Source: Caballeronia turbans
GTDB taxonomy: Bacteria; Pseudomonadota; Gammaproteobacteria; Burkholderiales; Burkholderiaceae
NCBI GenBank assembly: GCA_001544655.2
Contig: FCOD02000001.1
Span: 62,001 to 126,000 of the forward strand
Length of the DNA: 64,000 nucleotides
Reading direction: 5' to 3'
In this document: positions 15,270 through 56,213 of the stretch, in pieces
Numbering within the stretch: the stretch's first letter is position 1
How the letters are laid out: each line of letters begins with the position of its first letter
Notes under the pieces: generated by a model
Databases searched by the model: none
Seen by the model: only the letters and a program-made list of their open reading frames with translations
What the model was told of the DNA's origin: nothing
Translations under genes and position numbers: made by a program

Positions 15270-15803
15270 GTGACAAAACAAAAACGTTCACTAGCGCTAT
15301 CGATTTTGTTGTTCAGCGGTTTCATGGCCGCGACAGTCGCCGCGCACGCCGATGAAGCCGAAACTCAGCCTGTTTCGCGTCACACCGAAGCGCCGCCGGA
15401 TTCGCCGCCCAACACCGAAGCGGACGCGCCGGTGAGCAGTCAGGCGAAGTCGAAGGGCTTCCTCGAGGATTCGCACTTCAACGTGCTGATGCGCTCCTTT
15501 ACCGAGCATGACGAATTCAAGGGCGCGGGCAAGAAGGACGCGTGGGTGCTCGGCGCGCAGGCCGTCTTCGAATCGGGCTATACCAAGGGCCTGATCGGGC
15601 TCGGCGGCGACGTGTCGCTCTTCGGCGCGTTCAAGCTGAACGGCGGCAACGGGGCGGGTAATCGCGTGCACGTGGGCACGGACGGCGGCGGATCGAATCA
15701 ATTGGCGTGGGCCTATCCGGGCGTGTGGGACGTCAAGGCGCGCGTGTCGAACACGGTGCTCAAGTACGGTCAGCATTTTCGCCCGGAAGCCCTTATCCAG
15801 TAA
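15270..15803 (+). pseudogene. OprD-family porin, 5' part, interrupted by the prophage
   Basis: It encodes the N-terminal ~168 residues of an OprD-type specific porin (signal peptide about 1-28, FLEDSHFNVLMRSFTEHD, GLIGLGGDVSLFGAFKLNGG, VSNTVLKYGQ), then nine phage-encoded residues and a stop at 15801-15803. The GTG at 15270 is preferred because GTGGAG lies nine bases before it; the frame also opens at GTG 15255. The rest of the gene is at 55305-56213 in the same frame. Position behind oppABCDF, as for peptide-specific OprD paralogues, suggests an outer-membrane peptide channel. The remaining product lacks most of the barrel and should be non-functional. Confidence 0.9.
15762..15775 (+). other. 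attL core
   Basis: AAGTACGGTCAGCA, identical to 55305-55318. It encodes Lys-Tyr-Gly-Gln of the porin; the first base is a codon first position in both porin halves, so recombination here keeps the frame. Confidence 0.9.
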
Positions 15804-15841
15804 GGCGTTTCTAATATTCAGGGTGGCCGTTTCTAATATTC
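15789..15841 (+). promoter_or_regulatory. Left attachment-arm repeats (integrase/accessory sites)
   Basis: A hairpin-like GCCCTTATCCAGTAAGGC (15789-15806), then two direct copies of CGTTTCTAATATTC (15806-15819 and 15828-15841) spaced 22 bp, about two helical turns. Related copies lie near attR at 55175-55188 and, inverted, 55240-55253. This arrangement fits arm-type integrase sites of an attP. Confidence 0.75.
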
Positions 15842-15846
15842 CTGGC

Positions 15847-16905
15847 CTATGCTGACTTCTTCGTGGCCATTTTCACCTCGCTTTTCCCGTTCTTTTTGCC
15901 CTTGAAATAGAACTGCGTCGTGGTCGTTTTCGTGTGCACGGCGGCAATGCGAAGCTGCTCAATCGTGTATCCACCGTCGGCCGCATCGGTGATCGCTTTC
16001 GCGCGGATGTCCTTGATCGTGTAGGCGTATTTTTGCAGCCCGGCGCGATCGCACGCGCGGCGCCACACCTGCAATGCAGTCGTATCGCCCCACGGCTTTC
16101 CGGTGCGCGTGTGCAGCACATACGGCGACTTCACCTTCCCGGTGCTGCGCGCCACCTCGAGCGCGGCTTCAATGTCGGGCGTGATCGTCACGTCGACCGA
16201 GAGGCCGCTCGTGTGCTGCGTCTTGCTCGGCTTGAAGTGGATCACGCCGTTCTCCCGGTCTATCCAGTTCACGTCGTCATCACTCGACTTGCGCCACTTC
16301 AGCGCGCGGATTTCCGTCGAACGTTGGAGCGTCAGATAGCAGAGATCGACCAGCGCGAGGATCATCGGATTGATGGCGAGCTCGGCGCGGATCATAGCGA
16401 AATGCTCGTCGGTGATGTAGACGTCGCGGTCCGGCTGTGCCTTCAGGCGGATGCCGGTGCACGGGTTCTCGCCGACAAAGTGCCGGTTCTCCCGGCACCA
16501 TTGAAAGAAGCCGCTCAGGAAGGCGCGCATCGTGCGCTGCATGGGGATCTTCATTTTCCAGTTCTTCAGGAATTCGGCGACGTAGGCTGGATCGACCAAT
16601 TGCACGTCGATGTCGAGAAACCCCTCTTTCACGTATTCGCCATAACGCCACCAGCCTTTCTCGCGGTGCTCGCCGCGCTTCTCCTTCACGTATTCGTCGA
16701 CGAGCGCCGGCGTGTTGCCGAGTCCTTTCTGTGATTCGGCCTTTTCCTTCTCAGCGGCCAGGCGCTTGAGCATCTTGGTCTCGCCTTCGTCCACGCGGCA
16801 CAGCTTGATCCAGCGACCGCCCTTGGGAAAGTAGTACCAGCTTCCGCTCTTCTCATAAACTCGGCTCGGCAAGCCATCCGGAACGGTTCTGCGGCGGGCG
16901 TTCAT
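15847..16905 (-). CDS. int: Phage tyrosine-recombinase integrase
   Basis: A 352-residue tyrosine recombinase. An N-terminal arm-binding region (about 1-65) is followed by a SAM-like core-binding domain (about 70-165) and the catalytic domain. The first catalytic Arg is in TLQRSTEIRALKW, the second in YTIKDIRAKAITDA (Lys/Asp where His is usual in H-x-x-R), a His in AAVHTKTTTTQFYFK, and the nucleophile is the Tyr of QFYFK. It recombines the 14-bp core next to its 3' end. Its ATG overlaps the stop of the DUF4224 gene. Confidence 0.93.
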   Translation of the reverse strand: MNARRRTVPDGLPSRVYEKSGSWYYFPKGGRWIKLCRVDEGETKMLKRLAAEKEKAESQKGLGNTPALVDEYVKEKRGEHREKGWWRYGEYVKEGFLDIDVQLVDPAYVAEFLKNWKMKIPMQRTMRAFLSGFFQWCRENRHFVGENPCTGIRLKAQPDRDVYITDEHFAMIRAELAINPMILALVDLCYLTLQRSTEIRALKWRKSSDDDVNWIDRENGVIHFKPSKTQHTSGLSVDVTITPDIEAALEVARSTGKVKSPYVLHTRTGKPWGDTTALQVWRRACDRAGLQKYAYTIKDIRAKAITDAADGGYTIEQLRIAAVHTKTTTTQFYFKGKKNGKSEVKMATKKSA

Positions 16906-17141
16906 CGTACGGTTCTCAATGGTCTAAGGGCGGGGCGCGGAGGCTCCGTGCTGTTGGATAATATACCGACGCGCTTCTGCATCAGCGCTTCGAAGGTCGC
17001 CCAGGTCATTACCGGGCTTCCGTCTGCGCAGCGCACGACGCGCACGCCGAATTCAGACTGGAACCATTCGGCCTGCTTCGTCGATGTTTTCTTACCCGTC
17101 ACGCGCGCGAGGTCTTCGGCTGACATCAGGCGGTCACTCAT
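16902..17141 (-). CDS. DUF4224 family protein, possible directionality factor
   Basis: A 79-residue protein starting MSDRLMSAEDLARVTGKKTS and including QAEWFQSEFGVRVVRCADGS, the pattern of DUF4224 proteins found beside phage integrases. A small DNA-binding protein at this place often acts as excisionase, but that role is inferred from position. ATG 17141 is preferred over the GTG at 17144. It overlaps int by 4 bp. Confidence 0.75.
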   Translation of the reverse strand: MSDRLMSAEDLARVTGKKTSTKQAEWFQSEFGVRVVRCADGSPVMTWATFEALMQKRVGILSNSTEPPRPALRPLRTVR

Positions 17142-17200
17142 CACTCTCTCTCCAGATACGCGCGGCTTACGCGCATGAATTCATCGATGTTGCTGGTCAC
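17141..17200 (-). CDS. 19-residue possible coupling peptide
   Basis: GTG start overlapping the stop of the Lar-like gene, stop overlapping the start of the DUF4224 gene: VTSNIDEFMRVSRAYLERE. It may only be a translation-coupling ORF. Confidence 0.3.
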   Translation of the reverse strand: MTSNIDEFMRVSRAYLERE

Positions 17201-17750: not shown

Positions 17751-17778
17751 GATTTCCCTTCCTCCCCGGATTGCCGTG

Positions 17779-18548: not shown

Positions 18549-18557
18549 TTTCAAACC

Positions 18558-18653: not shown

Positions 18654-18967
18654 TTCTTGCTCAGACTTTTGCCGCATACGGCCTCGTCAATGGCGTCGTC
18701 TAGACGTTCACCATTCGGGCAGTCATAACCAAGCTTGATCGCCTCCTTCGGCCGACAAACAACCGCCATATCTGCTTCATTCCAGTTCTGCTTTCTCAGC
18801 CACCTGTACCGCTCCGCATCAATCCTGTCTTGCTCTGCGGACTGGGCGAGAGGTGCGGCGAGGATAGCCCGCACCGCGTCTAGAAATATCTCGCGCGTCG
18901 CGCCGGCACCCCAAGGAAAGGGTCTGCATGCCGTGCGCGCGATTTGGATAATCTGTTCGTCAGTCAT
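18650..18967 (-). CDS. Phage hypothetical protein
   Basis: A 105-residue protein beginning MTDEQIIQIARTACRPFPWG, with the AEQDRIDAERYRWLRKQNWNE segment that is common in small phage proteins of unknown role. The start overlaps the upstream gene by 8 bp. Confidence 0.6.
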   Translation of the reverse strand: MTDEQIIQIARTACRPFPWGAGATREIFLDAVRAILAAPLAQSAEQDRIDAERYRWLRKQNWNEADMAVVCRPKEAIKLGYDCPNGERLDDAIDEAVCGKSLSKK

Positions 18968-19589
18968 TTGGTTCCTCGTGCTTCGACGCGAATTCTTCAT
19001 GGTCTTTCAGGGATCGAACCATCCGCGCACACTCTTTTGCGGTCCATTCGAACCGGTCTGCTGACTCGTCGCCGACGAAGCCAAACGCCAGAATCGCCTC
19101 ACAGATACGCGCGGCTCGCTCATAAGCATGGTTTCGCAGCCAGCAATCGCGGCGAAACTTAATTACGAGAGGGCTATCGCTCATCCCGCCGTCCGCCTCT
19201 TGCTTGTCGCTCGGAGTGGCGAGAGGGGCGGCGTAGAGCGGCACGTTGTCAGTACCGTCATGCGTCAGCGCTTCACCCCACATGGTGTCAACGTGCGCCG
19301 GATTCTTCGCGATCTTTTCCAATCGCGCTGAACTCGTCCACGCCACCGGTTCATCTGAGAGAGGGGAGGGGGTGGCGAGAGCGCGGCGGTTCCATGCGGC
19401 TACGACTTCCTCGCGCGTTGCGTAGATCATCCCGCAGGAGCACGCGACGCATTCGATCGTCCAGCTTCCCGGATGCATCGCGGGAATGCCTGTGAGCGCC
19501 ACAAGACCGGGCGAGTGATCGTGCGGCTCTTGCTCGGTCAACACGGCTTCGGCGCCGCAGTGCGGGCACGGCTTCAGTTCTTGCGTCAT
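18960..19589 (-). CDS. Lar-like zinc-ribbon protein with C-terminal extension
   Basis: A 209-residue protein. Residues 1-70 form a Lar-like module: LKPCPHCGAEAVLTEQEP, then TIECVACSCGMIYATREEVVAAWNRRA. A proline/serine-rich linker follows and a helical C-terminal part (YERAARICEAILAFGF, CARMVRSLKDHEEF). A second Lar-type protein lies at 17197-17409. The extension has no recognised function. Confidence 0.65.
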   Translation of the reverse strand: MTQELKPCPHCGAEAVLTEQEPHDHSPGLVALTGIPAMHPGSWTIECVACSCGMIYATREEVVAAWNRRALATPSPLSDEPVAWTSSARLEKIAKNPAHVDTMWGEALTHDGTDNVPLYAAPLATPSDKQEADGGMSDSPLVIKFRRDCWLRNHAYERAARICEAILAFGFVGDESADRFEWTAKECARMVRSLKDHEEFASKHEEPND

Positions 19590-19627
19590 CTCAGTCTTCC
19601 AAAGTTAATCGCTAAAGGGCGGGGAGG

Positions 19628-20559: not shown

Positions 20560-20561
20560 GG

Positions 20562-20939: not shown

Positions 20940-21042
20940 GCTGTCCTCTTTAATCGTTATCCGGCGCAGGGCCGGGGGTGTGTCTGGCCGGTTTTAGCGC
21001 CCGTCTATGCGCACGCTACGGATCACCGGAAACCTCGGAAAC

Positions 21043-23048: not shown

Positions 23049-23049
23049 G

Positions 23050-23743: not shown

Positions 23744-24481
23744 TCACATCCTGTTCTTGATCTTGCGCGCCGGAACGGGGTGCGCAACGTAATACATCCA
23801 CGAGATTTCCTCAGGCCGGAATGTCTGCACGTCCTGCGCGTGGTAGCTGCCGAGCCGAATCCCGCCGCGACGCGCGAGAAGCCGTTTCAGCATTGTTTCT
23901 CCGGTCGTCAATCGAACGAGAACATCATCCTCCAGCTCCGGCTCGGTGGCAGGTTCGACCAGGGCGAACTCGCCAGGGTTGTATCGGGGAATCATCGTGT
24001 CATCGATGACAGGGACCAGAAATGATTGCGGGTCGCTGGTCGCTAGTTCTGCGTATTCTCTTGTTGCACCCACGGGGTATTCCTCACCCTTCCAAATTCT
24101 TTCAGGCAGGCCGGCACTTGGCATGCTCACCACGTACACGCGCCGGAACTTTGTTACGTCTAAAGAATACCGGATCGGGTCTAAAGCACTTGCAGAATTT
24201 TCCTTCTGTTGCACATTGGACAAATCCTCGAAAAAGGGACGCTTTTCGTCCGTATTCTCCAATTTGCCCGGCCTCATTGGGCCTTCGCCATTCAGCAACC
24301 AGATCGCGCTGATGCCGATCTGTTCCGCAGCCTTAAACATGCCGGTCTTCGACATGCCGCGGCGTTCCCAATTGTTTAGTACCTGTGGCGATTCATTAAG
24401 AAACTTGGCAAGGGGCGTCTGGCCGGTGATCCCGTGGATCTTCTCGGCGGCTTCGTAGAGGCGTGTCATGGTCGGGTGCAT
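23744..24481 (-). CDS. cI: CI-type phage repressor
   Basis: About 245 residues. The N-terminal DNA-binding helix-turn-helix is in TPLAKFLNESPQVLNNWERRGM, the C-terminal half is an S24/LexA-like dimerisation and self-cleavage domain: FLVPVIDDTMIPRYNPGEFALVEP, where Asp replaces the usual Ser of the D-S/D-M motif, then LEDDVLVRLTTGETMLKRL with the Lys. The missing Ser nucleophile suggests loss of RecA-stimulated self-cleavage. I use ATG 24481; 24469 is possible. The -10 of PRM (24504-24499) excludes starts further upstream. Confidence 0.85.
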   Translation of the reverse strand: MHPTMTRLYEAAEKIHGITGQTPLAKFLNESPQVLNNWERRGMSKTGMFKAAEQIGISAIWLLNGEGPMRPGKLENTDEKRPFFEDLSNVQQKENSASALDPIRYSLDVTKFRRVYVVSMPSAGLPERIWKGEEYPVGATREYAELATSDPQSFLVPVIDDTMIPRYNPGEFALVEPATEPELEDDVLVRLTTGETMLKRLLARRGGIRLGSYHAQDVQTFRPEEISWMYYVAHPVPARKIKNRM

Positions 24482-24498
24482 GCCCGTGATCTTCGCCG

Positions 24499-24557
24499 AA
24501 TTAAACATTTCGTTGTTCAACAAATCGTTTGACTTTTGTTTAAACGTGGTGTTTAAT
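24499..24557. promoter_or_regulatory. PR and PRM promoters with three operator-like sites
   Basis: Rightward PR: TTGACT 24529-24534, 17 bp, TTTAAT 24552-24557. Leftward PRM: TTTAAT at 24504-24499 with a poor -35 (CGATTT), as expected for an activator-dependent promoter. Operator-like 13-mers relative to AAACA-N3-TGTTT: 24542-24554 (one mismatch, on PR -10), 24518-24530 (two mismatches, on PR -35), 24503-24515 (two mismatches, on PRM -10). Confidence 0.8.
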
Positions 24558-24562
24558 GAGGC

Positions 24563-24760
24563 ATGGACAAAAAAACTCTCACCGCTATCGCTGACCGGGA
24601 GCTGATCGACAAGCTCGGTGGTCCCTCCCAGCTCGCTCGGATTCTCGGGTACTCCCGCGGGGGTGCTCAGCGTGTCCAGAACTGGAAGGAGAGGGGAATT
24701 CCCGCTGCTGTGAAGCTGGAGCACCCCGATCTCTTCCTGAACGAACGCGTTTCTTCGTAG
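24563..24760 (+). CDS. cro: Cro-type repressor
   Basis: A 65-residue protein. LIDKLGGPSQLARILGYSRGGAQRVQNWKERGIPAAVKLEHPD is the YdaS/Cro-like helix-turn-helix with the family's typical KLGG...VQNWK...IP order. It is divergent from cI. The PR -10 ends only five bases before the ATG, so the transcript is likely leaderless. It would turn down cI and early genes during lytic growth. Confidence 0.85.
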   Translation: MDKKTLTAIADRELIDKLGGPSQLARILGYSRGGAQRVQNWKERGIPAAVKLEHPDLFLNERVSS

Positions 24761-24897
24761 GCGACGACCTTCGATCATTTTCATTCGTACCCGTTTCTGC
24801 GTCAGCTTCATTGTTGTTCTGGACAAGGATTTCTTGTTGTTAATTTAACCGCGCTGCACTGCACCACAAACCAGCGCACATTGAGAGGAGGTGCTTC

Positions 24898-33111: not shown

Positions 33112-33480
33112 ATGAACGTTACCGCGATCAGTTCGCTGAAGAAGTTTCACCTCGTCACGGCGGCATCGACGAATATTAATTCGCTCGCAGCCGTTCCGAC
33201 CGGCTTTGACGGCTTCTCGGGATGGGCTACGGTCACTTGCTACCTGAAGGTGTTCGATAAGGCGAGCGCGCCTGTTCTCGGCACTGATGTCCCGGCGATG
33301 ACGTTCATGTTGCCGGCCAACGTCCCGCAGCGCATAGACTTCGGCGTCGAGACCTGCGCGATGAAGAACGGCCTGCAGATCGCCGTCACGCTGAACCCGG
33401 CTGACAATGACACGACGGTGCTCGCGGCGGCGAATACGTCGGGCGTCGACGTCTTCTACTCGCCGCAATCGGGCGTCTAA
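33112..33480 (+). CDS. Phage hypothetical beta-rich protein
   Basis: A 122-residue protein, beta-rich (FSGWATVTCYLKVFDKASAP, NGLQIAVTLNPADNDTTVL). Possibly a minor capsid or tail component. It overlaps the gp10-like gene by one base. Confidence 0.5.
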   Translation: MNVTAISSLKKFHLVTAASTNINSLAAVPTGFDGFSGWATVTCYLKVFDKASAPVLGTDVPAMTFMLPANVPQRIDFGVETCAMKNGLQIAVTLNPADNDTTVLAAANTSGVDVFYSPQSGV

Positions 33481-41194: not shown

Positions 41195-41656
41195 ATGGAC
41201 ATCAAGCCCGTTTTTACTGTCGAGCGATTCCAGGACGTCTACGACGAACTGCTGCCGCTTCTTCATGAGCACTACGACGAAATCAGCCTGCACAAGAAGA
41301 AGGGCTATCCGCTGGTTCCTGCCGTCTCGCTCTATCGCGCAATGCAGGATGCCGACCAGCTCGTAATGATGATTGGGCGTCTGCAAGGGAAGATCGTCGC
41401 CTACTTCGTCGTGTTCGTCCGTCCCGGCATCCACTATCAGACCTGTCTTGAGGCGGTCGGGGACATATTTTTCGTCGAGCAATCACGGCGCGGCGCCGCG
41501 ATCGGCCTGCAACTCTTCGAAGCGACCGAGCGCGAGCTGAAGCGCCGCGGCGTGAACCTCTTCATGGCCGGCGAAAAGCTGGCATTCCCGGCAACGGCTC
41601 TGTTCAAGCGCCGCGGCTTCGAACCCATTGAACGGAAATTTGCCAAATGGCTGTGA
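41195..41656 (+). CDS. GNAT-family acetyltransferase in the late operon
   Basis: A 153-residue protein. The acetyl-CoA loop is in FFVEQSRRGAAIGLQLFEATE (Q/R-x-x-G-x-A) and the C-terminal ATALFKRRGFEPIERKFAKW is typical of GNAT. The N-terminus (HEHYDEISLHKKKGYPLVP) is like phage acyltransferases next to portal genes. It could modify a virion protein or a host target. It overlaps the portal gene by 10 bp. Confidence 0.75.
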   Translation: MDIKPVFTVERFQDVYDELLPLLHEHYDEISLHKKKGYPLVPAVSLYRAMQDADQLVMMIGRLQGKIVAYFVVFVRPGIHYQTCLEAVGDIFFVEQSRRGAAIGLQLFEATERELKRRGVNLFMAGEKLAFPATALFKRRGFEPIERKFAKWL

Positions 41657-43950
41657 CCAAACAAGAACGACTCGACAAGGTCTGGGAGCGCGCGACCAAT
41701 CGGTTCGATCGCTGCTACGCGACGCAGCAACAGGTGCGCCTCGCCTCATTGGAGGACCGGCGATTTGCGTTCGTAGACGGCGCTATGTGGGAAGGCGGCC
41801 TCGGCGCACAGTTCGAGAACCGGCCGCGCTTCGTCGTGAACAAGGTTCAGAAAGCCGTCCGGCGCATCGTGTCGGAATACCGCGCGAATGCGATGACGGT
41901 CAATTTCCGCGCCAGCGACGACGACAGCCGCGCCGATGACCTCGACGCGCTGCGCATCGTCTATCGTGCCGACGAGCAATACAGCGGCGCGCAGGACGTC
42001 TACGTGCAGGCATTCGAGGAAGCGTGCTCAGGCGGTATCGGCGCATGGCGTCTGACGAACGATTACGACCAGCGCGCGGAGACGGAATACGACGACGACG
42101 CGCCGCAGCGCATCCTGTTCGAACCGATTCCGGATGCGGACATTTCCGTCTTCTTCGATCCGGATAGCCGCAAGCTCGACAAGTCGGACGCCAAATGGTG
42201 TACGGTGCTGAACCCGATCAGTTGGGACACGTACACGGACGAATACCTGAACGATGCCGTCACGCTGGCGGAACGCCCGTCGAGCTTCAAACAGGTGAGA
42301 TCGCTCAAACAGTTCGACTGGTTCACGAACGATGCCGTCTACATCGGTGAGTACTACGAAGTCGAGCAGAAGACAGAAGACTTTTCCGTGTGGCGCGAGC
42401 CACATTCGGGCGTCGAGCAGAAGGTGTACGCTGGGCTCGACGCGGAGTCGCGCGAAGACGCCGCCGAGCAGGCTGAACATTGGAAGTCGATTGGCTACGT
42501 GAAGGTGCGCAGCGGCAAGCGCAACCGCAAGCGAGTGCGCAAATACTTCATGGACGGCTGCGGCGTGATCAAGGATTGCGGCTACATCGCCGGGACGGAA
42601 ATCCCGATCGTCGTCGTGTACGGCATCCGTCAGATCATCGACGGCATCGAGCGATTCCAAGGCGCGGTACGGCTCGCGAAGGATTCGCAGCGCCTGTACA
42701 ACATGCAGATCAGCACGCTCGCGGACATTACCGCATTCACGCCGCGCGAGAAGCCGATTCTGACGCCGGAACAGATCGCGGGGCACGAACTGACGTGGGC
42801 TGGAGATCTCGTCGCGAATAATCCGTATCTGCTGATCAACCCGGTAACGGGTGCGGACGGCTCTGCCACGGCAACGGGCCCGGTCGGCTATATCAAGCAG
42901 CCTGACGTTCCGCCCGCGCTGGCTGGTCTCGTGCAGATCACCGCAGCCGACATGCTCGATGTGACGGGTGGCGATCTGGCGGCCGGACAGGTGACGTCCG
43001 GAACGTCTGACGCGCTCGTGAGCCGTGTTCAGGCGCACCAGGACATGCAGGTCTACATTTTCATCGACCAGATGGCGCGCGCGATGGAGCGCTGCGGGAA
43101 GATCTACCTGTCTATGGCGTGTGACGTCTACACGGAAGAAAGCCGCCAGTTTGCGGCGATCGGCGAGGACAACACGACCGAGACGACGCAGATCAACATT
43201 CCTTCGCTCAATCAGAAGGGCGAGCCGACGATCACGCGCTCATTCACGCCCGGCCTCGATGTGTTCGTCGACGTGGGCCCGGCATTCAACAGCCGGCGCG
43301 ACGCCACGGTGAACGCACTGGCGAAGATCATTCCGGTAATCGGAGATCCGCAGACGCAGCAGTTGATGATTATGACGCTCGTCAAGAATCTCGACGGCGA
43401 GGGCATGGAAGATCTCGCGCAGTTCGCGCGCAAGCAACTCGTGCAGGCCGGCGTGGTCAAGCCGACGCAGGAAGAAGAAGAGGAAATGCAGCAGGCGCAG
43501 GAAGAAGCCGCGAACCAGCCGCCCGACGCCGCAACGCTCGCGCTTATCGCGCAGGCCCGCGAATCGTCGGCGAACGCGACGAAGGCGCAGGCTTCTGCAG
43601 TTCAATCGCTCTCTACTGCTGAACTCAATCAGGCGAAGGCAGCGGAATCCGTTTCGAACACGAACGCATCTCAGCTCGGGACGATTATGCAGATGCTCGC
43701 GCACATTCAGGAGCGTGTCGGCGGGCAAGCGAATCAGATCAGCGATAGTCAGCCGAAAAGCCCGGCCGATGCGAAGGCGAACGCGGCAATTGCTGCGAAC
43801 GTCGCCGCGCCGGCTCCCGGCGTGAATCCGCTGCATGGCGCGCAGGTTGTTCCGCAGGATCCGAACGCGCAGCAATTGACCGCGGGGAACGTGGCGGCTC
43901 CGGTGCAGGCTCCGGTGCATCAGTCGAATCGGCCCGCTGTCGGTAAATGA
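41647..43950 (+). CDS. Portal protein, P22 gp1 family
   Basis: A 767-residue portal, close to the 725 residues of P22 gp1. The N-terminal DKVWERATNRFDRCYATQQQ, ENRPRFVVNKVQKAVRRIVSEYRANAM and IDGIERFQGAVRLAKDSQRLYNMQIST segments match the P22-like portal fold; the C-terminal ~130 residues are a coiled, Gln/Ala-rich barrel extension. It forms the dodecameric DNA gate. It overlaps terL by 4 bp. Confidence 0.85.
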   Translation: MAVTKQERLDKVWERATNRFDRCYATQQQVRLASLEDRRFAFVDGAMWEGGLGAQFENRPRFVVNKVQKAVRRIVSEYRANAMTVNFRASDDDSRADDLDALRIVYRADEQYSGAQDVYVQAFEEACSGGIGAWRLTNDYDQRAETEYDDDAPQRILFEPIPDADISVFFDPDSRKLDKSDAKWCTVLNPISWDTYTDEYLNDAVTLAERPSSFKQVRSLKQFDWFTNDAVYIGEYYEVEQKTEDFSVWREPHSGVEQKVYAGLDAESREDAAEQAEHWKSIGYVKVRSGKRNRKRVRKYFMDGCGVIKDCGYIAGTEIPIVVVYGIRQIIDGIERFQGAVRLAKDSQRLYNMQISTLADITAFTPREKPILTPEQIAGHELTWAGDLVANNPYLLINPVTGADGSATATGPVGYIKQPDVPPALAGLVQITAADMLDVTGGDLAAGQVTSGTSDALVSRVQAHQDMQVYIFIDQMARAMERCGKIYLSMACDVYTEESRQFAAIGEDNTTETTQINIPSLNQKGEPTITRSFTPGLDVFVDVGPAFNSRRDATVNALAKIIPVIGDPQTQQLMIMTLVKNLDGEGMEDLAQFARKQLVQAGVVKPTQEEEEEMQQAQEEAANQPPDAATLALIAQARESSANATKAQASAVQSLSTAELNQAKAAESVSNTNASQLGTIMQMLAHIQERVGGQANQISDSQPKSPADAKANAAIAANVAAPAPGVNPLHGAQVVPQDPNAQQLTAGNVAAPVQAPVHQSNRPAVGK

Positions 43951-45218
43951 ACGTCTCGCTTCCTGACTGGGCAGAATGCCTTCTGACGCAGGGGCCGCGC
44001 TACACCATTTATCACGGTGGGCGCGGCTCCGGTAAGTCGATGTCGGTCGGGACGGCGCTCCCGATCCGCGCCGCTGCCGAGCCGCTCCGGATTCTCTGCT
44101 GTCGAGAGATTCAGCAATCGATTCAGGAGTCGGTGAAGTCGATGCTCGAATCGCGCATCAATGCGATGGGGCTGAACGGCTCGTTCTACGACATTCAGAA
44201 AACCGAGATCAACGGCGCGAACGGCAGCAAGTTCATCTTCCGCGGTCTCTCGGACGTCACTGCCGATTCGATCAAGTCGCTCGCCGACATCGATATTGTC
44301 TGGGTCGAAGAGGCACAGGCGCTGTCGCAGCGCTCGCTCGATCTGCTGCTGCCGACAATCCGAAAAGAGACGTCAGAGATCTGGATGACGATGAATCCGG
44401 AACTCGACACCGATCCGGTCTATACGACGTTCATCGAGAAGCCGCCCGCGAATGCGCGCGTGATTCAGGTCAATTGGAACCGGAACCCGTTCTGGAACAC
44501 TGCGCTCGAAGCCGAACGGCTACGCTCGAAGGCTGACGATCCGGAGCGCTACGATCATATCTGGGAAGGCGTGCCGCTGTCGGCCGCATCCGGCGCGATC
44601 TACCGCAAGGAGATGCACGCGCTGTCGGTCAACAATCGCATCCGGCCGCTGTCGGAAGATCCGGCTCTGACGACGCATGCCGTTTTCGACTTGGGCGTTG
44701 CCGATCTGACGTCTATCACCATCGCGCAGGCGGACATTTCCGGGCTGCGTGTCCTGGCGTTCTACGAGGATCACGGACTGTCGCTGAAGGATTACAGCGA
44801 CTGGCTGCGTCAGAACGGATGGGGGCATTGCACGATCTGGCTTCCTCACGACGGCCGCGCTCGCTCGCTGCATACCGGCATGTCGTCGGAATCGCTGATG
44901 AAGTCCTACGGGTGGGAAGTGAACATCGTTCCGTCGCTGCCGGTCGAGACGGGCATCCAGAACACGCGCGCGGCGCTGAAGAATGCGTTCTTCTCCGATG
45001 GTGACGACGTGTCGAAGCTGCTCGAACACCTGCGCCGCTACACACGAAACAAGGCAGGTCATCCGCAGCACGACGAGCATTCACACGCGGCCGACAGTTT
45101 CCGCTACACCTGCCTGTCGATGGGTCAGTTCAAGGCGGCGGCAGAACGCAAGGCGAAGCAGGCCGATCTGGCTTCTCGCGTACGCGTCGTGCCGACTGTG
45201 AATCACTGGAATCGGTAA
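43947..45218 (+). CDS. Terminase large subunit
   Basis: A 423-residue packaging motor. Walker A is HGGRGSGKS (about residues 26-34), Walker B IDIVWVEEAQA (about 112-122), coupling motif in SEIWMTMNPE. The RNaseH-like nuclease begins at TTHAVFDLGVADLTS with its first catalytic Asp and ends around HDEHSHAADSFRYTC with later acidic residues. Type: P22/Sf6-like headful terminase. Confidence 0.9.
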   Translation: MNVSLPDWAECLLTQGPRYTIYHGGRGSGKSMSVGTALPIRAAAEPLRILCCREIQQSIQESVKSMLESRINAMGLNGSFYDIQKTEINGANGSKFIFRGLSDVTADSIKSLADIDIVWVEEAQALSQRSLDLLLPTIRKETSEIWMTMNPELDTDPVYTTFIEKPPANARVIQVNWNRNPFWNTALEAERLRSKADDPERYDHIWEGVPLSAASGAIYRKEMHALSVNNRIRPLSEDPALTTHAVFDLGVADLTSITIAQADISGLRVLAFYEDHGLSLKDYSDWLRQNGWGHCTIWLPHDGRARSLHTGMSSESLMKSYGWEVNIVPSLPVETGIQNTRAALKNAFFSDGDDVSKLLEHLRRYTRNKAGHPQHDEHSHAADSFRYTCLSMGQFKAAAERKAKQADLASRVRVVPTVNHWNR

Positions 45219-46260: not shown

Positions 46261-47127
46261 ATGCAAGAAGAAATCATCGAGCAACCCGACCTCGGCGCTC
46301 AGGACAACGAAGGGCAGCAAGGCGAGCAGACGCAGCCGGAAAACACCGGCCCCGCACTGTTCGATGACGTCGAAGAAATCGTCGACAACGGCGGCGAAGG
46401 CCAGCAGGAAGGCGAAGGTGCTCAAGGCGCAGACCAACCGCAGCGCGAAAGCCTCACGTTCCGAAAGCTCCGCGAAATCAGCAATGCAGCGCTGAAGGAT
46501 AAGCGCCGCCTGGAACGCGAACTCGAAGAGATCCGCGCGAAACTCCCGCAGGAAAAGCCGCAACTCGGCGCAAAGCCGACGCTCGATCAGTTCGACTATG
46601 ACGAGTCTCGCTTCTCGGAAGCCTACGACAAGTGGATGGAGCAGAAGGTCGCGCAGGACCGCGCCGACCAGGAAAAGCTCAACGCGCAGCGCCGCGAGCA
46701 AGAAGAACTCGAGAACTTCAAGAAATCGTACAAGGCGCGTGCCGATGCGCTCGGCGTCGACGACTTTCAAGAAGCCGAAGCCGAAGTCGGCGGCATTCTC
46801 AACCAGACGCAGAGCGGGCTGCTCATGCGCGGGGCTGATGACCCTGCGACGCTCGTCTACGCGCTGTCGAAGTCGCCCGAGCGCCTCATCGAACTGTCGA
46901 AGATCTCCGATCCGGTGAAATTCACCGTCGCCATTGCCAAACTGGAGTTGAACTTGACCACTCGCAAACAGAGCCGTCCCGCGCCGGAACCGCGCGTGTC
47001 CTCGGAACGCAGCTCATCGGCCGGAATCGGCGGAAGCTCGCAACTCGATCGCCTGCGCGACGAAGCCGCCCGCACCGGCGATTACAGCAAGGTCGTTGCC
47101 TACAAGAAGCAACACAATATTCGCTGA
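46261..47127 (+). CDS. Capsid scaffolding protein
   Basis: A 288-residue acidic, Glu/Gln-rich, largely helical protein with a long coiled coil (LKDKRRLERELEEIRAKLPQE; ADQEKLNAQRREQEELENFK) and a basic C-terminal end (YSKVVAYKKQHNIR), as in P22 gp8 where the C-terminus binds coat. It directly precedes the coat gene. Confidence 0.8.
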   Translation: MQEEIIEQPDLGAQDNEGQQGEQTQPENTGPALFDDVEEIVDNGGEGQQEGEGAQGADQPQRESLTFRKLREISNAALKDKRRLERELEEIRAKLPQEKPQLGAKPTLDQFDYDESRFSEAYDKWMEQKVAQDRADQEKLNAQRREQEELENFKKSYKARADALGVDDFQEAEAEVGGILNQTQSGLLMRGADDPATLVYALSKSPERLIELSKISDPVKFTVAIAKLELNLTTRKQSRPAPEPRVSSERSSSAGIGGSSQLDRLRDEAARTGDYSKVVAYKKQHNIR

Positions 47128-47284
47128 CTGCTTAGGTATCCTTGATTCACATAACTTAAAGTAGTAACATTCGGTGAAACGCTGCCTGACGCACATAAGA
47201 GACATTCCTTCTGTGCTGCCGGCAGCCACCGTATCTCAGCCCATCGGCGCGTAGGCGTTAGTTCTAGCTGGATGCGAAATCTGT

Positions 47285-47308
47285 GGCGTTTCGACGCCTT
47301 TCATTTTT
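47285..47308 (+). terminator. UUCG hairpin upstream of the coat gene
   Basis: GGCGT-TTCG-ACGCC followed by TTTCATTTTT, 37 bp before the coat start. Either a partial terminator, a stabiliser of the coat message, or a processing site. Confidence 0.5.
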
Positions 47309-47334
47309 CGTCTCTTATTTAGGACTACACGTCA

Positions 47335-48650
47335 TGAGCAATCCTCCGTCCGCTCCTTTTTTGTCGACCGCGAACTCCTTTTCGAAGGAAGAGCGCGTCG
47401 CTTTCGAACGACTCCTCGAAGGCTTCAATGACCAACTGGTCATGTCGAAGGCCGTCACCGTGTTCCAAAACGATCAAACGATGATGGCTCGCGCCGGCGA
47501 CATCATCCGCCGCCCGATGCCCTACATCGCGCGCTCGTTCTCGGGCCTCGATCAAACGGCCAACTTCGTCGGCAAGACGCAGCTCACCATCCCGGCAGCG
47601 ATCGACACGATCAAGAGCTCGCCGTGGACGATGGACGCAACCGAACTGCGCGACGCGCTGCAAGAAAATCGCCTGGGCACGGCTGCGAAGCAAAAGATCG
47701 CATCGGACATCAATCTGTCGGTCGTGAATGCGGTTTCGACGCTCGGCTCGCTCGTCGTTAAGCGTACCGTCGCCGCGACCGGCTTCGACGATCTCGCGCA
47801 AGCTGATTCGTTGATGAACGAATCGGGCATCGATTATGACGGCCGCTATGCGGTCTTCGGCTCGCGTGACTACAACGCGATGGCCGGCAACCTCGCATCG
47901 CGTGCGTATCTGGTCGAAGGCCAGAAGGCCGCGGACGCATTCGAAATGGCAACGGTCGGCCGTCAGGTCGCCGGCTTCGAGCGCGTTCTGAAGGCTGATT
48001 ACATCGCGCGTCTGACGGCTGCGGCCGGCGTGACGGTGACGGTCAACGGCGCGAACCAGTTCACCACGCCGAAGGCGTTGGCAGCAAGCCCGAGCGGCCC
48101 GCTGCAATCGAACGTCGACAACCGCATTCAAGCGCTGGCGATCACCGTCACGTCGGGCACGGTCAAGGTGGGTGACGCCTTCACGATCGCGGGCGTGAAT
48201 AACGTCCACCCGATCACGAAGGTTGACACCGGTCAGCCGAAGACCTTCCGCGTCGTCAGCATCGTCTCGGGCGCGGGTGGCACCGGCACGATCCAGATCA
48301 CCCCGGCGATCATTTCCGGTCAGGGCGGCACCGACGCGGAACTCGCGTATCAAAACGTGACGGCGACCCCGGCATCGGGTGCGGCGATCACGTGGCTCAA
48401 CACGGTTTCGACCGGCGTGAACTGCTTCTGGAAGAAGGAAGCGGTCGAAATCCTGCCGGGTCGTCTCGCAGTGCCGGCCGATCAAGGTCTCGCAGTGATG
48501 CGCGGCACGACCGATCAGGGCATCGAGATCGTGATGACCAAGCAGGCGCACATCGAGACGTACAAATCGCTGTATCGCGTCGACGCATTCTGGGGGACTT
48601 CGGTAACGAACCCTGAGATGTGCGGGGTCATCCTCTTCAACCAGACGTAA
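47335..48650 (+). CDS. Major capsid (coat) protein, P22 gp5 family
   Basis: A 438-residue protein with the P22-coat pattern: MARAGDIIRRPMPYIARSFSG, IASDINLSVVNAVSTLGSLV, FGSRDYNAMAGNLASRA, GRQVAGFERVLKADYIARL, and an I-domain-like beta insertion (about 235-345: ITVTSGTVKVGDAFTIAGVN, FRVVSIVSGAGGTGTIQITP). ATG 47335 follows TAGGACTACACGTC; the longer frame is unsupported. It builds the T=7-type shell. Confidence 0.85.
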
Positions 48651-49945: not shown

Positions 49946-49947
49946 AA

Positions 49948-51522
49948 ATGACAACGATAAATGATCTTTGCGTCGCAAGTTCCTTTTCGGACGACGACAA
50001 GCTGCCGATGTGGCAGACCGCCAACGGCATCACGCGCGCGCTGCCGCTGTCTGTTCTGACGGCGCAATTTCTCACGAACGAGTCTATCAACCAGTTAGCA
50101 GCTAGCCCGACTGTAGAAAAGTTTGCGGCTGGCCCGGACTTCACGCCCGGCACGACGATCGCACTTACGCTGGCGAACTCGTATCTTTCCGGAAATAACA
50201 TCGAAGTTTTCTTCGACGCCGCGTTCCAAGGTCCGGACCAATACGCTCTTTCGAACAATGCGCTGGCTTTCATTTCTCCTATTCCCGTAGGAGTGCAGAA
50301 TGTGTACGTCCGCGGTGGAGCGGCTCGTCTGACGGACGCCCCGTCTGATGGAACAGTGACCGACGCCAAGGTCGCGAACGGTTCAAAGCTCCTGAATCGC
50401 ATCAAAGATACGATCGACGTCAAGGATTTTGGCGCGGTAGGCGACGGCGTGACCGATGACACGGCGGCGTTTTCGGCGGCTTTTGCATATGCTCGCACGT
50501 TTAAATCATCCAACATTTTCATCCCGCCTGGGACATTCGTTCTGAGTTCGCAGCTTGTGTACAACATGCCGAGCGCGACGGCGGCGATTTCGCTTTTTGG
50601 TTCAGGCTCTGATGTCACCGAACTGACGTGGGCGGCCGGCGCCGGTATGGTCTTCAACTTCAACGGGAACTTCAATTCCGTTCATATCCGCGACATGTCG
50701 ATCACGACCGGAACGGCCGGGATTGGCAATCCAGCAATCTCTCTGATCGGGCCGTCGTCGCCGTTTCAGCCGCAACTGCCCGCGCAGTCCGACATCACGA
50801 ACGTTACGTTCCGTGGTTCGGATGGCTATCAGATGACGAACTACTGGAGCACTGATGTCCTCGTGCAGTGCGCCCACAACGTGAATTGCTACAACACGCA
50901 GTTCGTCGGCCCTTCCGGCGTTGGCGGTTATGGCTTCCACGTCTTCGGCACGCCGATCAACCCCGCGTATCCGTTCAACTTCACGAGTTGCTCGTTCAAT
51001 CACAGGTTCGCCGGGATCTACATCGGTACGCAGGTGCAGGGGATCACGGTCAACCAGTGCAACTTTACGGCGGCGGTCGGCGTTGGGAGTTCGTACGGAA
51101 TTCTGTCGGACGCAACCGCGCAAGCGAGCAGCCTTGTTCAATTGAGTGTCACAGGAAGCCAGTTCACGGTGAATAGTGCGGCGGTGTTCCTCCCCGTTGG
51201 CGTCACCGGAACGAACATCAACGACAACTTCATCTTTGTTCCTCCAGGTGCATTCGGCATCGACATTCAAGGCGCGCTTTTCACGATTACCGGCAACAAC
51301 ATCATCGGTCAATCCACGAGCGGGACAACGGGCATCACCATCGGCGGCCAAAGTCTTGGCCCTGGCGTGATCACCGGTAATCAGATGAACAGTCTTGGTC
51401 TGGCTGTTTTCCTTGGCCCGCAAAGCTCGAACGTCAACGTGCAGTCGAACATCTATGGCAGCAACACGACCAACGTCAACAACGGCGGAACTGGCAACAC
51501 AGTTGGTGGCGGCTCCGCATAA
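49948..51522 (+). CDS. Tailspike with pectate-lyase-like beta-helix
   Basis: A 524-residue protein. The N-terminal ~35 residues (TINDLCVASSFSDDDKLPMW) form a docking motif shared with the 70-residue protein at 32662. After a beta linker, DTIDVKDFGAVGDGVTDDTAAF starts a pectate-lyase-3-type right-handed beta-helix (about 150-510), the fold of capsule- or O-antigen-cleaving tailspikes. The catalytic residues cannot be assigned from sequence. Confidence 0.8.
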   Translation: MTTINDLCVASSFSDDDKLPMWQTANGITRALPLSVLTAQFLTNESINQLAASPTVEKFAAGPDFTPGTTIALTLANSYLSGNNIEVFFDAAFQGPDQYALSNNALAFISPIPVGVQNVYVRGGAARLTDAPSDGTVTDAKVANGSKLLNRIKDTIDVKDFGAVGDGVTDDTAAFSAAFAYARTFKSSNIFIPPGTFVLSSQLVYNMPSATAAISLFGSGSDVTELTWAAGAGMVFNFNGNFNSVHIRDMSITTGTAGIGNPAISLIGPSSPFQPQLPAQSDITNVTFRGSDGYQMTNYWSTDVLVQCAHNVNCYNTQFVGPSGVGGYGFHVFGTPINPAYPFNFTSCSFNHRFAGIYIGTQVQGITVNQCNFTAAVGVGSSYGILSDATAQASSLVQLSVTGSQFTVNSAAVFLPVGVTGTNINDNFIFVPPGAFGIDIQGALFTITGNNIIGQSTSGTTGITIGGQSLGPGVITGNQMNSLGLAVFLGPQSSNVNVQSNIYGSNTTNVNNGGTGNTVGGGSA

Positions 51523-51530
51523 GGATCGAT

Positions 51531-51866: not shown

Positions 51867-52114
51867 AACAGGTATTGATTGACGACTGGCGCAAGGCGTA
51901 CAAGTTCGCGTCGATTCGTCTCGCGGCGTTTCTCGCGCTGGTGTACTCGCTGATTCCGCTCGCCGCGGACCAGTGGCCGAACGTGATGCCGTCGTTCATC
52001 TCGTGGTTTCCGAAGAATGGCCAGCAATGGGCGCCGATCGTCGGGAGCGTTCTGTTCATCCTCGCGCGCGTCGTTCAGCGCCCACCTCGGGAGCACAGAG
52101 ATGGCGCGAATTGA
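51863..52114 (+). CDS. Putative holin
   Basis: An 83-residue protein with two hydrophobic segments (about 18-36 and 58-72), a charged N-terminus (KQVLIDDWRKAYK) and a basic tail (ARVVQRPPREHRDG). Location directly before the endolysin supports a holin. ATGA overlap with the preceding gene. Confidence 0.75.
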   Translation: MKQVLIDDWRKAYKFASIRLAAFLALVYSLIPLAADQWPNVMPSFISWFPKNGQQWAPIVGSVLFILARVVQRPPREHRDGAN

Positions 52115-52589
52115 CGTAGGCACGGCGGGCGGCGAAAACCGTCTCGCCTTCCTCGACATGATTGCTGTAAGCGAGATCGGCGCGCCGCTGCTCGCCGTGA
52201 GTGACGATGGTTACAACGTGCTTGTCGGCGCGACGGCTGCGAAGCCTCTTCTGTTCAAGAGCTATGCGGACCATCCGAACATCTTGAATTCGGCGCTGCG
52301 ATCGACAGCCGCAGGGCGCTATCAGATCCTGAATCGCTGGTGGCGGCTGTACAAGGCGCAGATGTATTTGCGTGACTTCTCGCCGATCTCTCAGGACCGG
52401 TATGCACTCCAGCAACTGAAGGAGCATGGCGCGCTGCCACTGATCGACGCAGGCCGGTTTGATGAAGCGGTCGCGAAGGTCGCGAACGTCTGGGCGAGTC
52501 TTCCGGGTGCCGGCTATGGTCAGCATGAGAACCAACTTGAGCATCTGCGCGACGCGTATCTGTCCGCAGGCGGGAGCGTATCGAAATGA
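52101..52589 (+). CDS. Endolysin, lambda R-like lytic transglycosylase
   Basis: A 162-residue enzyme. RLAFLDMIAVSE carries the catalytic Glu, followed by DDGYNVLVGA, SYADHPN, STAAGRYQILNRWW and DFSPISQDRYALQQLKEHGALPLI, which follow lambda R closely. It cleaves murein between MurNAc and GlcNAc after holin release. No signal peptide, so export depends on the holin. Confidence 0.92.
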   Translation: MARIDVGTAGGENRLAFLDMIAVSEIGAPLLAVSDDGYNVLVGATAAKPLLFKSYADHPNILNSALRSTAAGRYQILNRWWRLYKAQMYLRDFSPISQDRYALQQLKEHGALPLIDAGRFDEAVAKVANVWASLPGAGYGQHENQLEHLRDAYLSAGGSVSK

Positions 52590-54082: not shown

Positions 54083-55117
54083 TCACGGCTTACGCTTGGT
54101 CCCGGTCATAGCGACATTGAAAGCGATGTCGTCGTTGACGTTCTTCGGGATCTCGCGCAACCATGTTCGATCCTGAAGCAGATAGTAAGGGTCCGAGTAT
54201 GAGAGCAGCTCTCGGATCGTCATATCTGAAAACTTGTCGCGATGTTGGGGCGGAAGGCCATCCCTGTAGATTCGCGACACCCAATACAAAGAGTACGCGG
54301 CGTGTCCGAAAATGGATGCGCCGCTACTCTCGACGTCGATCTGGCTGAAGAGGTTCGTGAGTCCCTCTACCGTCATGTTGTAGTAGTGGTTGGGATACCC
54401 GTGGCGCGCGGCCATGAATGCCGTATCGATTCTCAGCGTGCCGCCCGGCTTCAGAACCCGCTCGATTTCCTTCGCGACGTCCCACGGACGCATCACGTGC
54501 TCTAGCACCGCGAGCGAAAAGATGCAGTCGACGGAATTGTCCCTGAATGGAAGTTTCTCGGCGAACGATCGGACGTCCGTCGTTACGAAGTTACCGAGTT
54601 CAAGATTGATGATGTCGGGGTAGTACTCCGGCCGGAACCCTGCTCCGAGATCGACGATAACGCCGCCACGGTGCTTTTCGATCGCCTCGAACAGGTCGGG
54701 ATTGTAGCCCCATGCCGAAATCGGCAGTTCGTCGGGCACGGCGTCGCCGACCGTATCGAGCGCGAGTGTGCGTTCGTTGACGGGCAGTCCAGGCAGGAAC
54801 ACATCCTTGAAGCGCTCCAGCTTCTTGCGCTTTTCCTCGCGGATCAGATCGATACGGTGAAACACCATCTTCCGGTTCTGCGTGTGGCCGATCTTGCAGA
54901 AGTGATCGAGGCCGCTTCGGAAATTACGTTCCTCCACGTCGCTCCGCACGTCAGGATTGAACGCGAGATAGCCTTCCTCATTGAACCGATCCGGTGTCGC
55001 TTTCTCGATCAGCCTGACGCAATCCCATCCGTTCGTGGACGTCCTCTCGCTCGTCGGCTCGTATATTTTGACGGATGCCGGGTCAAGGGTGCCGGGCGGA
55101 AAAGTCTTGGCGTTCAT
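54083..55117 (-). CDS. SAM methyltransferase with glycan-type N-terminal repeat, cargo gene
   Basis: A 344-residue protein. Residues 45-85 carry YLAFNPDVRSDVEERNF and SGLDHFCKIGH, a repeat usual in polysaccharide-modifying enzymes. The class I methyltransferase core follows: motif I VIVDLGAGFRP (153-163), FVTTDVRSF, SVDCIFSLAVLEHVMRPWDV and RVLKPGGTLRID. A role in methylating surface glycan is inferred. Leftward, beside attR and against the late genes, a typical place for lysogenic-conversion genes. ATG 55117 is the first Met; the longer frame overlaps arm sites. Confidence 0.7.
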   Translation of the reverse strand: MNAKTFPPGTLDPASVKIYEPTSERTSTNGWDCVRLIEKATPDRFNEEGYLAFNPDVRSDVEERNFRSGLDHFCKIGHTQNRKMVFHRIDLIREEKRKKLERFKDVFLPGLPVNERTLALDTVGDAVPDELPISAWGYNPDLFEAIEKHRGGVIVDLGAGFRPEYYPDIINLELGNFVTTDVRSFAEKLPFRDNSVDCIFSLAVLEHVMRPWDVAKEIERVLKPGGTLRIDTAFMAARHGYPNHYYNMTVEGLTNLFSQIDVESSGASIFGHAAYSLYWVSRIYRDGLPPQHRDKFSDMTIRELLSYSDPYYLLQDRTWLREIPKNVNDDIAFNVAMTGTKRKP

Positions 55118-55174
55118 AGTTTGGAATCTCGTGTTGTCTGCGGGACCGACGCGCAGGATTTTATCAGGCTGCTT

Positions 55175-55282
55175 CGTTTCTAATATCCAGCGCGCAACCG
55201 GGCGCAAAGGCGCACCGGCGCTTGATCAAAATCTGCGCAAAATATTAGAAGCGATTCGGCGTAAAGCCTTATGCAGCAAGGC
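55175..55282. promoter_or_regulatory. Right attachment-arm repeats
   Basis: CGTTTCTAATATCC (55175-55188; one change from the left copies), an inverted copy AAATATTAGAAGCG (55240-55253; two changes), and GCCTTATGCAGCAAGGC (55266-55282), a hairpin similar to 15789-15806. Together with the left arm these frame the attP. Confidence 0.7.
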
Positions 55283-55304
55283 TCAGCGGTTGATTTCAAT
55301 CTTG

Positions 55305-55318
55305 AAGTACGGTCAGCA
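55305..55318 (+). other. attR core
   Basis: AAGTACGGTCAGCA, identical to 15762-15775, continuing into the porin reading frame as LKYGQQLFDNPF. Confidence 0.9.
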
Positions 55319-56213
55319 ACTCTTCGACAACCCGTTTCTCGTACCGCACGACAACCGCGCGTTGCCGCCGACTTATCGCGGCTTCTCGCTTGCGAGCGAT
55401 GAAATCAAGAACCTGACGCTCAAGGCCGGCACGGTGGATGGCGTGCTCGCGCGCGGCATGACGACCGTCACCGGCCTGACGACCGAATACGGCGGCACGC
55501 ACGTCTCGCAGTTCACGTACTTCGGCGGCGACTGGACGCACGGTGACGATACGTCGGTGTCGCTGTATGGCAGCGTCGCGAACAACGTGTGGCAACAGTA
55601 CTACCTGACGGCGACGCAGAGCATCGGCGATCCCAAGACCGTGCGCTGGACCGGCTCGCTGAACTACTACTACACGGGCGCGATCGGCGACAAGCGGCAA
55701 GGCGCGATCAACAACAACGCGTATTCGCTGGCACTTGCCGGCACGCACGGCGCGCATACGGTGCAGGTCGCGTTCCAGCAGATCGTGAGCGATCAGACGT
55801 TCGACTACATGGGCCAGTCGGCGGGCGACTATCTCTCGAACTCGCTCGACGTGGACTACAACCAGCCGCATGAAAAGTCGTTGAGCCTGTCCTACACGCT
55901 CAACATGAAGCAGTACGGCGTGCCGGGACTCAAGTTCACGATGTGGGGTGCATATGGCTGGGACGCCGATGGCAGTGCGATGGCCAACAGCGGCACGGCT
56001 CAGGCGGCCAACTATCTCGTCAACGGTGAACCGATCCACGGCACGCACTATGAAATCGGCGTGATTCCGAGCTATACGATTCCGGATGGCAAGTTCAAGA
56101 ACACGTCGGTCAAGTTCTACTACATGCACCATCACAGCAATAGCGCCTACTACCCGGACGGCACCAGCGATGTGTACCGGCTGATGGTCAACGTGCCCGT
56201 CAACATCTTCTGA
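55305..56213 (+). pseudogene. OprD-family porin, 3' part
   Basis: 302 codons plus stop encoding the remaining barrel: KYGQQLFDNPFLVPHDNRAL, EIKNLTLKAGTVDGVLARGM, LSLSYTLNMKQYGVPGLKFT, ending LMVNVPVNIF, all typical of OprD porins. It has no start of its own; the open frame upstream to 54981 runs through prophage DNA. Joined to 15270-15761 across the core it gives a 466-residue porin precursor of normal length. Confidence 0.9.

What the first reader, a model, noticed from the sequence alone, without database searches (positions are those of the whole stretch)
15270..56213. Prophage sits inside an OprD porin gene and exact excision would restore it
The 14-bp core AAGTACGGTCAGCA at 15762-15775 and 55305-55318 lies in the same codon phase of the two porin halves (KYGQ). 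Joining them gives an uninterrupted 466-residue OprD-type porin following an oligopeptide ABC operon. Lysogens would lose the presumed outer-membrane peptide channel while keeping the inner-membrane transporter. A tyrosine integrase targeting the middle of a porin gene rather than a tRNA is uncommon and could act as a reversible genetic switch.
Basis: partly seen in the sequence, partly recalled or inferred. Interest (0 to 1): 0.85.

Follow-up and report, generated by a model that had tools for sequence, protein, structure and literature searches.

The report
Prophage splitting an outer-membrane porin gene
In this soil bacterium a dormant virus has inserted itself cleanly into the middle of the gene for its only channel of one peptide-porin type, at a short sequence that resembles part of a transfer-RNA gene; this is a well-documented example of a known kind of virus insertion, not evidence of a new genetic switch.

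Summary
A 39.5-kb prophage lies between the genome's only two copies of AAGTACGGTCAGCA (15762-15775, 55305-55318), which split one OprD-family porin gene in phase. 44 of 58 genomes of the genus (Caballeronia) have one long open porin frame; close relatives show the reconstructed attB, behind the same peptide ABC operon. It is the genome's only OprD-family gene; the nearest solved structure is the dipeptide porin OpdP. Integrase, probable excisionase, S24-type repressor and virion genes are present, so exact excision is plausible, but it was not observed.

New here: most integrase relatives use tRNA-Pro, with the anticodon arm CTGA-TCCCAAA-TCAG in the core. The porin attB (CTGA-CCGTACT-TGAG) has nearly the same dyad and 7-bp spacing. 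In attP it starts exactly 43 bp from an arm-type repeat, as in four related phages with different cores. The porin is best read as a tRNA-like attB reached by retargeting.

The switch idea is unsupported: 1 of 58 genomes has the insertion, three others lost the porin by IS-like inserts or deletion, and insertion into protein genes is common. Ordinary in kind, with a useful retargeting series.

The parts
9429..11222 (+). substrate-binding protein of peptide ABC transporter (SBP_bac_5)
   Evidence: Pfam PF00496 E 1.2e-87
11262..12182 (+). ABC permease B
   Evidence: Pfam PF00528 E 1.6e-34
12179..13084 (+). ABC permease C (OppC/DppC-like); the overlapping ORF 12151-13110 is taken as a shadow frame
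   Evidence: Pfam PF00528 E 3.1e-31 and PF12911; the other frame had no Pfam match
13088..14074 (+). ABC ATPase D
   Evidence: PF00005, PF08352
14067..15050 (+). ABC ATPase F
   Evidence: PF00005, PF08352; homologue upstream of the porin in 38 of 38 named loci
15270..15775 (+). 5' part of the OprD-family porin gene; the frame runs on into the prophage and stops at 15803
   Evidence: PF03573 profile 1-112
15759..15773 (.). attL core dyad CTCA-AGTACGG-TCAG (half-site, 7-bp putative overlap, half-site)
15762..15775 (+). 14-bp identity core, attL copy
15809..15816 (-). arm-type repeat (TTCTAATA on +)
15831..15838 (-). arm-type repeat (TTCTAATA on +)
15847..16905 (-). tyrosine integrase, 352 aa
   Evidence: PF00589 E 1.7e-8; PHROG 1 integrase E 9.9e-36
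16902..17144 (-). probable excisionase, 80 aa, overlapping the integrase start
   Evidence: PHROG 1266 excisionase E 6.8e-9; Pfam DUF4224 E 4e-12
23744..24826 (-). CI-like repressor with S24 peptidase domain
   Evidence: PHROG 4 repressor E 6.2e-23; PF00717 E 1.3e-7
33480..35186 (+). head closure protein
   Evidence: PHROG 578 E 6.4e-72
41647..43950 (+). portal protein
   Evidence: PHROG 156 E 1.3e-122
43947..45218 (+). terminase large subunit
   Evidence: PHROG 3717 E 5.2e-53
46261..47127 (+). scaffolding protein
   Evidence: PHROG 648 E 1.9e-35
47283..48650 (+). major head protein
   Evidence: PHROG 283 E 5.9e-74
49948..51522 (+). tail spike with pectate-lyase-like domain
   Evidence: PHROG 2234 E 4.1e-10; PF12708 E 1.8e-14
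52017..52589 (+). endolysin
   Evidence: PHROG 90 E 2.8e-48
54083..55117 (-). methyltransferase-domain gene at the attR end of the prophage
   Evidence: PF08241 E 1.1e-13
55178..55185 (-). arm-type repeat (TTCTAATA on +)
55243..55250 (+). arm-type repeat (TATTAGAA on +)
55302..55316 (.). attR core dyad TTGA-AGTACGG-TCAG
55305..55318 (+). 14-bp identity core, attR copy
55305..56213 (+). 3' part of the OprD-family porin gene, cut off from its own start
   Evidence: PF03573 profile 107-394

Best explanation
A temperate phage (podovirus-like by my reading of its gene content) integrated by its own tyrosine integrase at one site inside the genome's only OprD-family porin gene. The integrase belongs to a group whose members mostly sit at tRNA-Pro. 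It appears to recognise an imperfect dyad CTGA-N7-T(C/G)AG placed at a fixed distance from arm-type repeats. The porin codons around LKYGQ happen to offer that dyad, and the phage attP carries the same 7-bp overlap. Recombination split the gene exactly, in phase. The lysogen keeps the peptide ABC operon but can make only a truncated N-terminal piece of the porin. With integrase, probable excisionase and an S24-type (SOS-type) repressor present, induction should excise the phage exactly and restore the gene. Shown: the split, the att sites, empty sites in relatives, dyad and arm geometry. Inferred: crossover position, excision, loss of channel function, peptide as substrate, and the evolutionary order tRNA to porin.
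For: Core unique in the genome; exact reconstruction of attB as seen in relatives. One open porin frame of at least 471 aa in 44 of 58 genus genomes. No second OprD gene in the genome. Integrase, excisionase, repressor and virion genes. Direct repeats at both ends of relatives' elements give tRNA-Pro cores for G002, G086, G167, G072, G190 (TGG) and G146, G022 (GGG type), and non-tRNA cores for G380 and G052 (14 relatives tried, 9 resolved). The dyad is in attB of own, G380, G052 (there ATGA) and the five TGG-type sites (8 of 10 attB). Arm-to-core distance is 43 bp in 5 of 5 attP regions measured (own, L050, L051, L052, G380). The arm 8-mers occur four times in 64 kb, all beside the att sites. 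Shuffles of the attP spacer held the full motif in 32 (L050) and 24 (L051) of 5000. The own integrase groups with L050-L052 and G380, 100/100. G001 holds the uninterrupted G052-type site over 191 bases at 94%. Nearest solved porin is OpdP.
Against: No excised phage or empty site of this same strain was found; the only exact match to the attP/attL pattern in viral contigs is the prophage's own record. The motif occurs 200 times forward and 215 reverse in the genome (backward-read control 63 and 71), so it alone cannot explain target choice. The motif search allowed one relaxed position: the attP right half-site is only TCAA in own, TCAC in G002, TCAT in G190. L052 has only CTG-N9-CAG at the place, and the GGG-type sites G146 and G022 lack the motif. 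The arm distance was not measured for G052 or the tRNA-type elements. Which target is ancestral is not resolved: the tree has open forks, the G052 row is a long branch of unsure place, and shuffled labels do as well in 103 (tRNA-Pro) and 89 (non-tRNA) of 500 shuffles.
Confidence: 0.88

Rival explanations
1. Active lysogeny: the prophage works as a regulated, reversible switch of the porin, excising without killing the cell to turn peptide uptake back on.
For: Integrase, probable excisionase and S24-type repressor present; joined frame open. Precedent: phiSa3 in another gene (PMC6597384, abstract and section list).
Against: Only 1 of 58 genus genomes has the insertion, so the arrangement is not seen to be kept; lysis and virion genes are present, which suits ordinary induction; no excision data.
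Confidence: 0.05
2. Neutral insertion into a dispensable gene: the porin is expendable in this lineage and the phage has no stake in it. (Compatible with the best explanation.)
For: The porin is broken in G040 (IS256-like insert), G019 (IS-like sequence 29 codons after the core, rest of the gene not found) and G001 (internal deletion) (IS names are my reading). No match in 9 of 58 genomes, 7 of them 4.2 Mb or smaller.
Against: 44 of 58 keep a full frame. Codon differences from three relatives are mostly synonymous (98, 78, 83 synonymous against 18, 19, 28 non-synonymous), which fits selection before a recent insertion.
Confidence: 0.6
3. Receptor removal: the porin is a phage receptor, and integration protects the lysogen from superinfection.
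For: Porins can serve as phage receptors (said in PMC10449497, passage); nothing in the sequence excludes it.
Against: The phage encodes a pectate-lyase-like tail spike, which points to a polysaccharide receptor (inference); no recurrence in other genus genomes.
Confidence: 0.03
4. The split is an assembly or transposition artefact rather than site-specific integration.
For: Draft genome of 120 contigs.
Against: Both junctions lie inside one 530-kb contig; fixed arm geometry; exact core and matching attB in relatives.
Confidence: 0.01

Closest known systems
Prophages and islands integrated in protein-coding genes: dusA family (PMC4482086, start of abstract in the listing), rimO phage JC1 (PMC9144972, passages), glyoxylate carboligase prophage vB_PaeS-D14F (PMC10449497, passage)
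   Same: Element inserted within a protein gene; JC1 uses a short (18-bp) shared core
   Different: Here the middle of a porin gene is cut and not rebuilt; JC1's recombinase is a predicted serine type
tRNA anticodon-arm integrases (PMC8371274, passages: 7-bp anticodon loop as overlap, flanking stem as core sites)
   Same: Dyad with 7-bp spacer; related integrases sit at tRNA-Pro
   Different: The target is a run of porin codons, not a tRNA
Lambda off-site integration (PMC5605937, abstract and one passage: over 300 sites, ompF among the examples)
   Same: Porin gene hit by a tyrosine integrase
   Different: Here the core identity is exact and attP matches the porin, so it looks like a primary site (inference)
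phiSa3 in hlb (PMC6597384, abstract)
   Same: Insertion inactivates a gene, exact excision restores it
   Different: Conditional excision is reported there and unknown here
OpdP dipeptide porin near the dpp genes of Pseudomonas aeruginosa (PMC4206461, passages; 3syb)
   Same: OprD family next to peptide ABC genes; best solved match
   Different: Distant relative; substrate untested here

Membership tests
Temperate prophage with lambda-type tyrosine integrase | tyrosine integrase domain | tested here: met
   PF00589, PHROG 1
Temperate prophage with lambda-type tyrosine integrase | direct-repeat att core at both ends and an empty site in relatives | tested here: met
Temperate prophage with lambda-type tyrosine integrase | core dyad with about 7-bp overlap and separate arm-type sites | tested here: met
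   by sequence and fixed geometry only; own attP right half-site is imperfect; binding not tested
Temperate prophage with lambda-type tyrosine integrase | excision and infectious particles | not testable with these tools
   no reads or culture
tRNA-targeting integrase | att core in a tRNA gene | tested here: not met
   own core is in a porin gene; relatives are at tRNA-Pro
OprD/Occ porin family | PF03573 over the cut-off across the profile | tested here: met
   the halves cover profile 1-112 and 107-394; OpdP is the best solved match of the intact homologue L053
OprD/Occ porin family | peptide transport (OpdP-type function) | not testable with these tools
   inferred from synteny and OpdP similarity
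Active lysogeny / phage regulatory switch | regulated, reversible excision without lysis that restores the gene | not testable with these tools
   no expression or excision data
Active lysogeny / phage regulatory switch | same gene occupied in related lysogens (my criterion) | tested here: not met
   1 of 58 genus genomes; a viral-contig scan with the porin right half confirmed no relative; the own record L049 carries the left half

The most novel reading that the evidence does not exclude
The integrase lineage moves between target genes by exchanging only the 7-bp overlap while the half-site dyad and the 43-bp arm spacing stay fixed, and the porin insertion is kept as a reversible, damage-inducible switch of peptide uptake.
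Probability: 0.05. Interest if true: 0.7.

Novelty: new member of a known kind. Interest (0 to 1): 0.36.

Why it matters
The insertion itself is an ordinary consequence of lysogeny: probable loss of a peptide channel. The useful part is the set of related integrases whose attP architecture stays constant while the 7-bp overlap and the target (tRNA-Pro, GST-like start codon, intergenic, porin) change. It makes the question of how integrases leave tRNA sites testable with cloned att pairs.

Tried and rejected
Rejected: a chance repeat; a second OprD gene that compensates (only the two halves); prophages in the porin of other genus members (G040 and G019 have IS-like sequence, G001 a deletion); the same attP in other phages (only the own record). 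Led nowhere: the integrase scan of named genomes confirmed no relative, so the allowed second scan went to the porin; the porin right half in viral contigs gave no confirmed relative. One search tried 14 relatives; no convincing far core was found for G105, G008, G095, G091 and G258 (G258's contig ends first); G107 was not tried, as only 197 bases follow its integrase. A search for a prophage inserted in a porin gene found no paper with all five terms. The permC row came from a shadow frame and is not used. The first tree merged three rows under one label and was redone; it holds 18 of 19 integrases, G167 being left out because its gene has a stop.

Labels from my own reading and no tool: the tRNA-Pro fragment at the end of G107's contig, the GGG type of the G146 and G022 cores, the GST-like name of the G052 target, the IS names, the signal peptide of the porin, and 'podovirus-like'.

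Full report
WHAT IS THERE. The window is C30:62001-126000 of a 7.35-Mb, 120-contig genome. Its relatives in the named scan are Caballeronia: 38 loci, a few filed under Burkholderia or Paraburkholderia names. A peptide ABC operon (9429-15050: binding protein, two permeases, two ATPases) is followed by an OprD-family porin gene cut at the codons for KYGQ. The 14-bp core AAGTACGGTCAGCA is at 15762 and 55305 in the same phase and occurs nowhere else in the genome. The two halves are the only OprD-family matches in the genome.

EMPTY SITES. Of 58 genus genomes (own included), 49 match the right half. 44 have one open frame of at least 471 aa; G015 has a shorter one (312 aa); own, G040, G001 and G019 are broken; 9 have no match, 7 of these being genomes of 4.2 Mb or less. 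G040 is split by an IS256-like transposase frame. In G019 only 29 codons follow the core before IS-like sequence, and the rest of the gene was not found. G001 has an internal deletion (IS names are my reading). One search kept loci of 19 relatives; all 19 hold the core site with at most two mismatches, 8 of them exactly, and L005, L014 and L020 read GTGCTCAAGTACGGTCAGCAACTCTTCGAC, which is what the window's two flanks give together. Of 38 named loci, 36 frames are at least 440 aa, 8 have the exact core, and 38 have the ATPase F homologue upstream; the window's MFS gene has a match in 23, some loci being too short to show it.

THE PROPHAGE. 39,543 bp from core to core. Integrase 15847-16905, probable excisionase 16902-17144, S24-type repressor, and matches to primosomal protein, portal, terminase, scaffold, head, tail spike, endolysin and spanins (29 ORFs chosen by me were scanned, 7 had no match). 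The same prophage is a record in the viral collection (L049, 100%). The best-scoring integrase relative in named phages is only 31.6% identical (KS5).

HOW THE SITE IS CHOSEN. Family search: 13 of 398 genomes have an integrase relative at E<=1e-50, own included. Genus search: 5 of 58 at E<=1e-20, own included. Of the 12 others, 7 have tRNA-Pro(TGG) beside the integrase by ARAGORN; G107 shows part of it at a contig end (my reading); G146 has a 48-bp core in a GGG-type tRNA-Pro; G380 is intergenic; G091 lies 1.1 kb from tRNA-Pro(GGG); G105 is unresolved. The three others that are not in this list: G052 sits at the start codon of a GST-like gene, and the empty site is uninterrupted in G001 over 191 bases at 94%; G022 has a GGG-type core; G008 is unresolved.

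In integrase orientation the attB sites are CTGA-CCGTACT-TGAG (own), CTGA-ATCCATA-TCAG (G380), ATGA-TGGACAG-TGAG (G052) and CTGA-TCCCAAA-TCAG (five tRNA-Pro(TGG) sites, the anticodon arm); the two GGG-type sites lack the motif. In attP the right half-site is looser: TCAA in own, TCAC in G002, TCAT in G190. The attP core begins 43 bp from the start of the second TATTAGAA repeat in own, L050, L051, L052 and G380 (5 of 5 measured), and 66-67 bp before the third; L052 keeps only CTG-N9-CAG there. Cores differ among the five; the host sites of L050-L052 are unknown. The motif is frequent in the genome (200 forward, 215 reverse; backward control 63, 71), so overlap identity and the rest of the half-sites must add specificity. 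The own integrase groups with L050-L052 and G380 (100/100). G052 falls elsewhere, though as a long branch of unsure place, so non-tRNA targets may have arisen more than once; direction is not resolved, and label clustering is no better than in 103 and 89 of 500 shuffles. The genome's tRNA-Pro(TGG) gene is present and whole at C35, and no second integrase relative at E<=1e-20 was found in the genome.

CONSEQUENCE. The left half encodes about the N-terminal third plus 9 phage-derived residues before a stop; the right half is cut off from its start. A working barrel is therefore unlikely (inference). The intact homologue L053 is closest to OpdP among solved structures (E 2e-68), and P. aeruginosa opdP lies near dpp genes (PMC4206461, passages), so a peptide channel is the best guess.

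KNOWN OR NEW. Anticodon arms used as 7-bp overlap plus dyad are described (PMC8371274, passages). Insertion into protein genes is common (PMC12884075, passages; PMC9144972, passages; PMC10449497, passage; PMC4482086, start of abstract in the listing). Lambda off-target insertions include ompF (PMC5605937, abstract and passage). Conditional excision is reported for phiSa3 (PMC6597384, abstract and section list). Among the papers listed in my searches (15 of 29; 40: 15 of 16; 41: 4 of 4; 59: none; 60: 12 of 91) I saw no title or abstract start about this insertion; lists were capped and subscription journals are mostly not held. Verdict: real, well supported, a new member of a known kind; the switch is unproven.

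Noticed in passing
54083-55117 (-): A methyltransferase-domain gene sits at the attR end of the prophage, a likely cargo gene.
   Followed up: partly
18960-20374 (-): A Lar-like restriction alleviation protein next to a DNA methyltransferase: possible anti-restriction genes of the prophage.
   Followed up: no
L033, L034, L035: The porin orthologue is broken in three other genus members by IS-like sequence or deletion.
   Followed up: yes
L030 and L115 (G052): A related prophage has its core on the start codon of a GST-like gene, so the coding part stays whole but gets phage DNA upstream, possibly changing its expression.
   Followed up: partly
L050, L051, L052: Viral contigs carry an unbroken attP-like region with four arm repeats beside an integrase 63-66% identical to the window's; their host sites are unknown.
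   Followed up: partly
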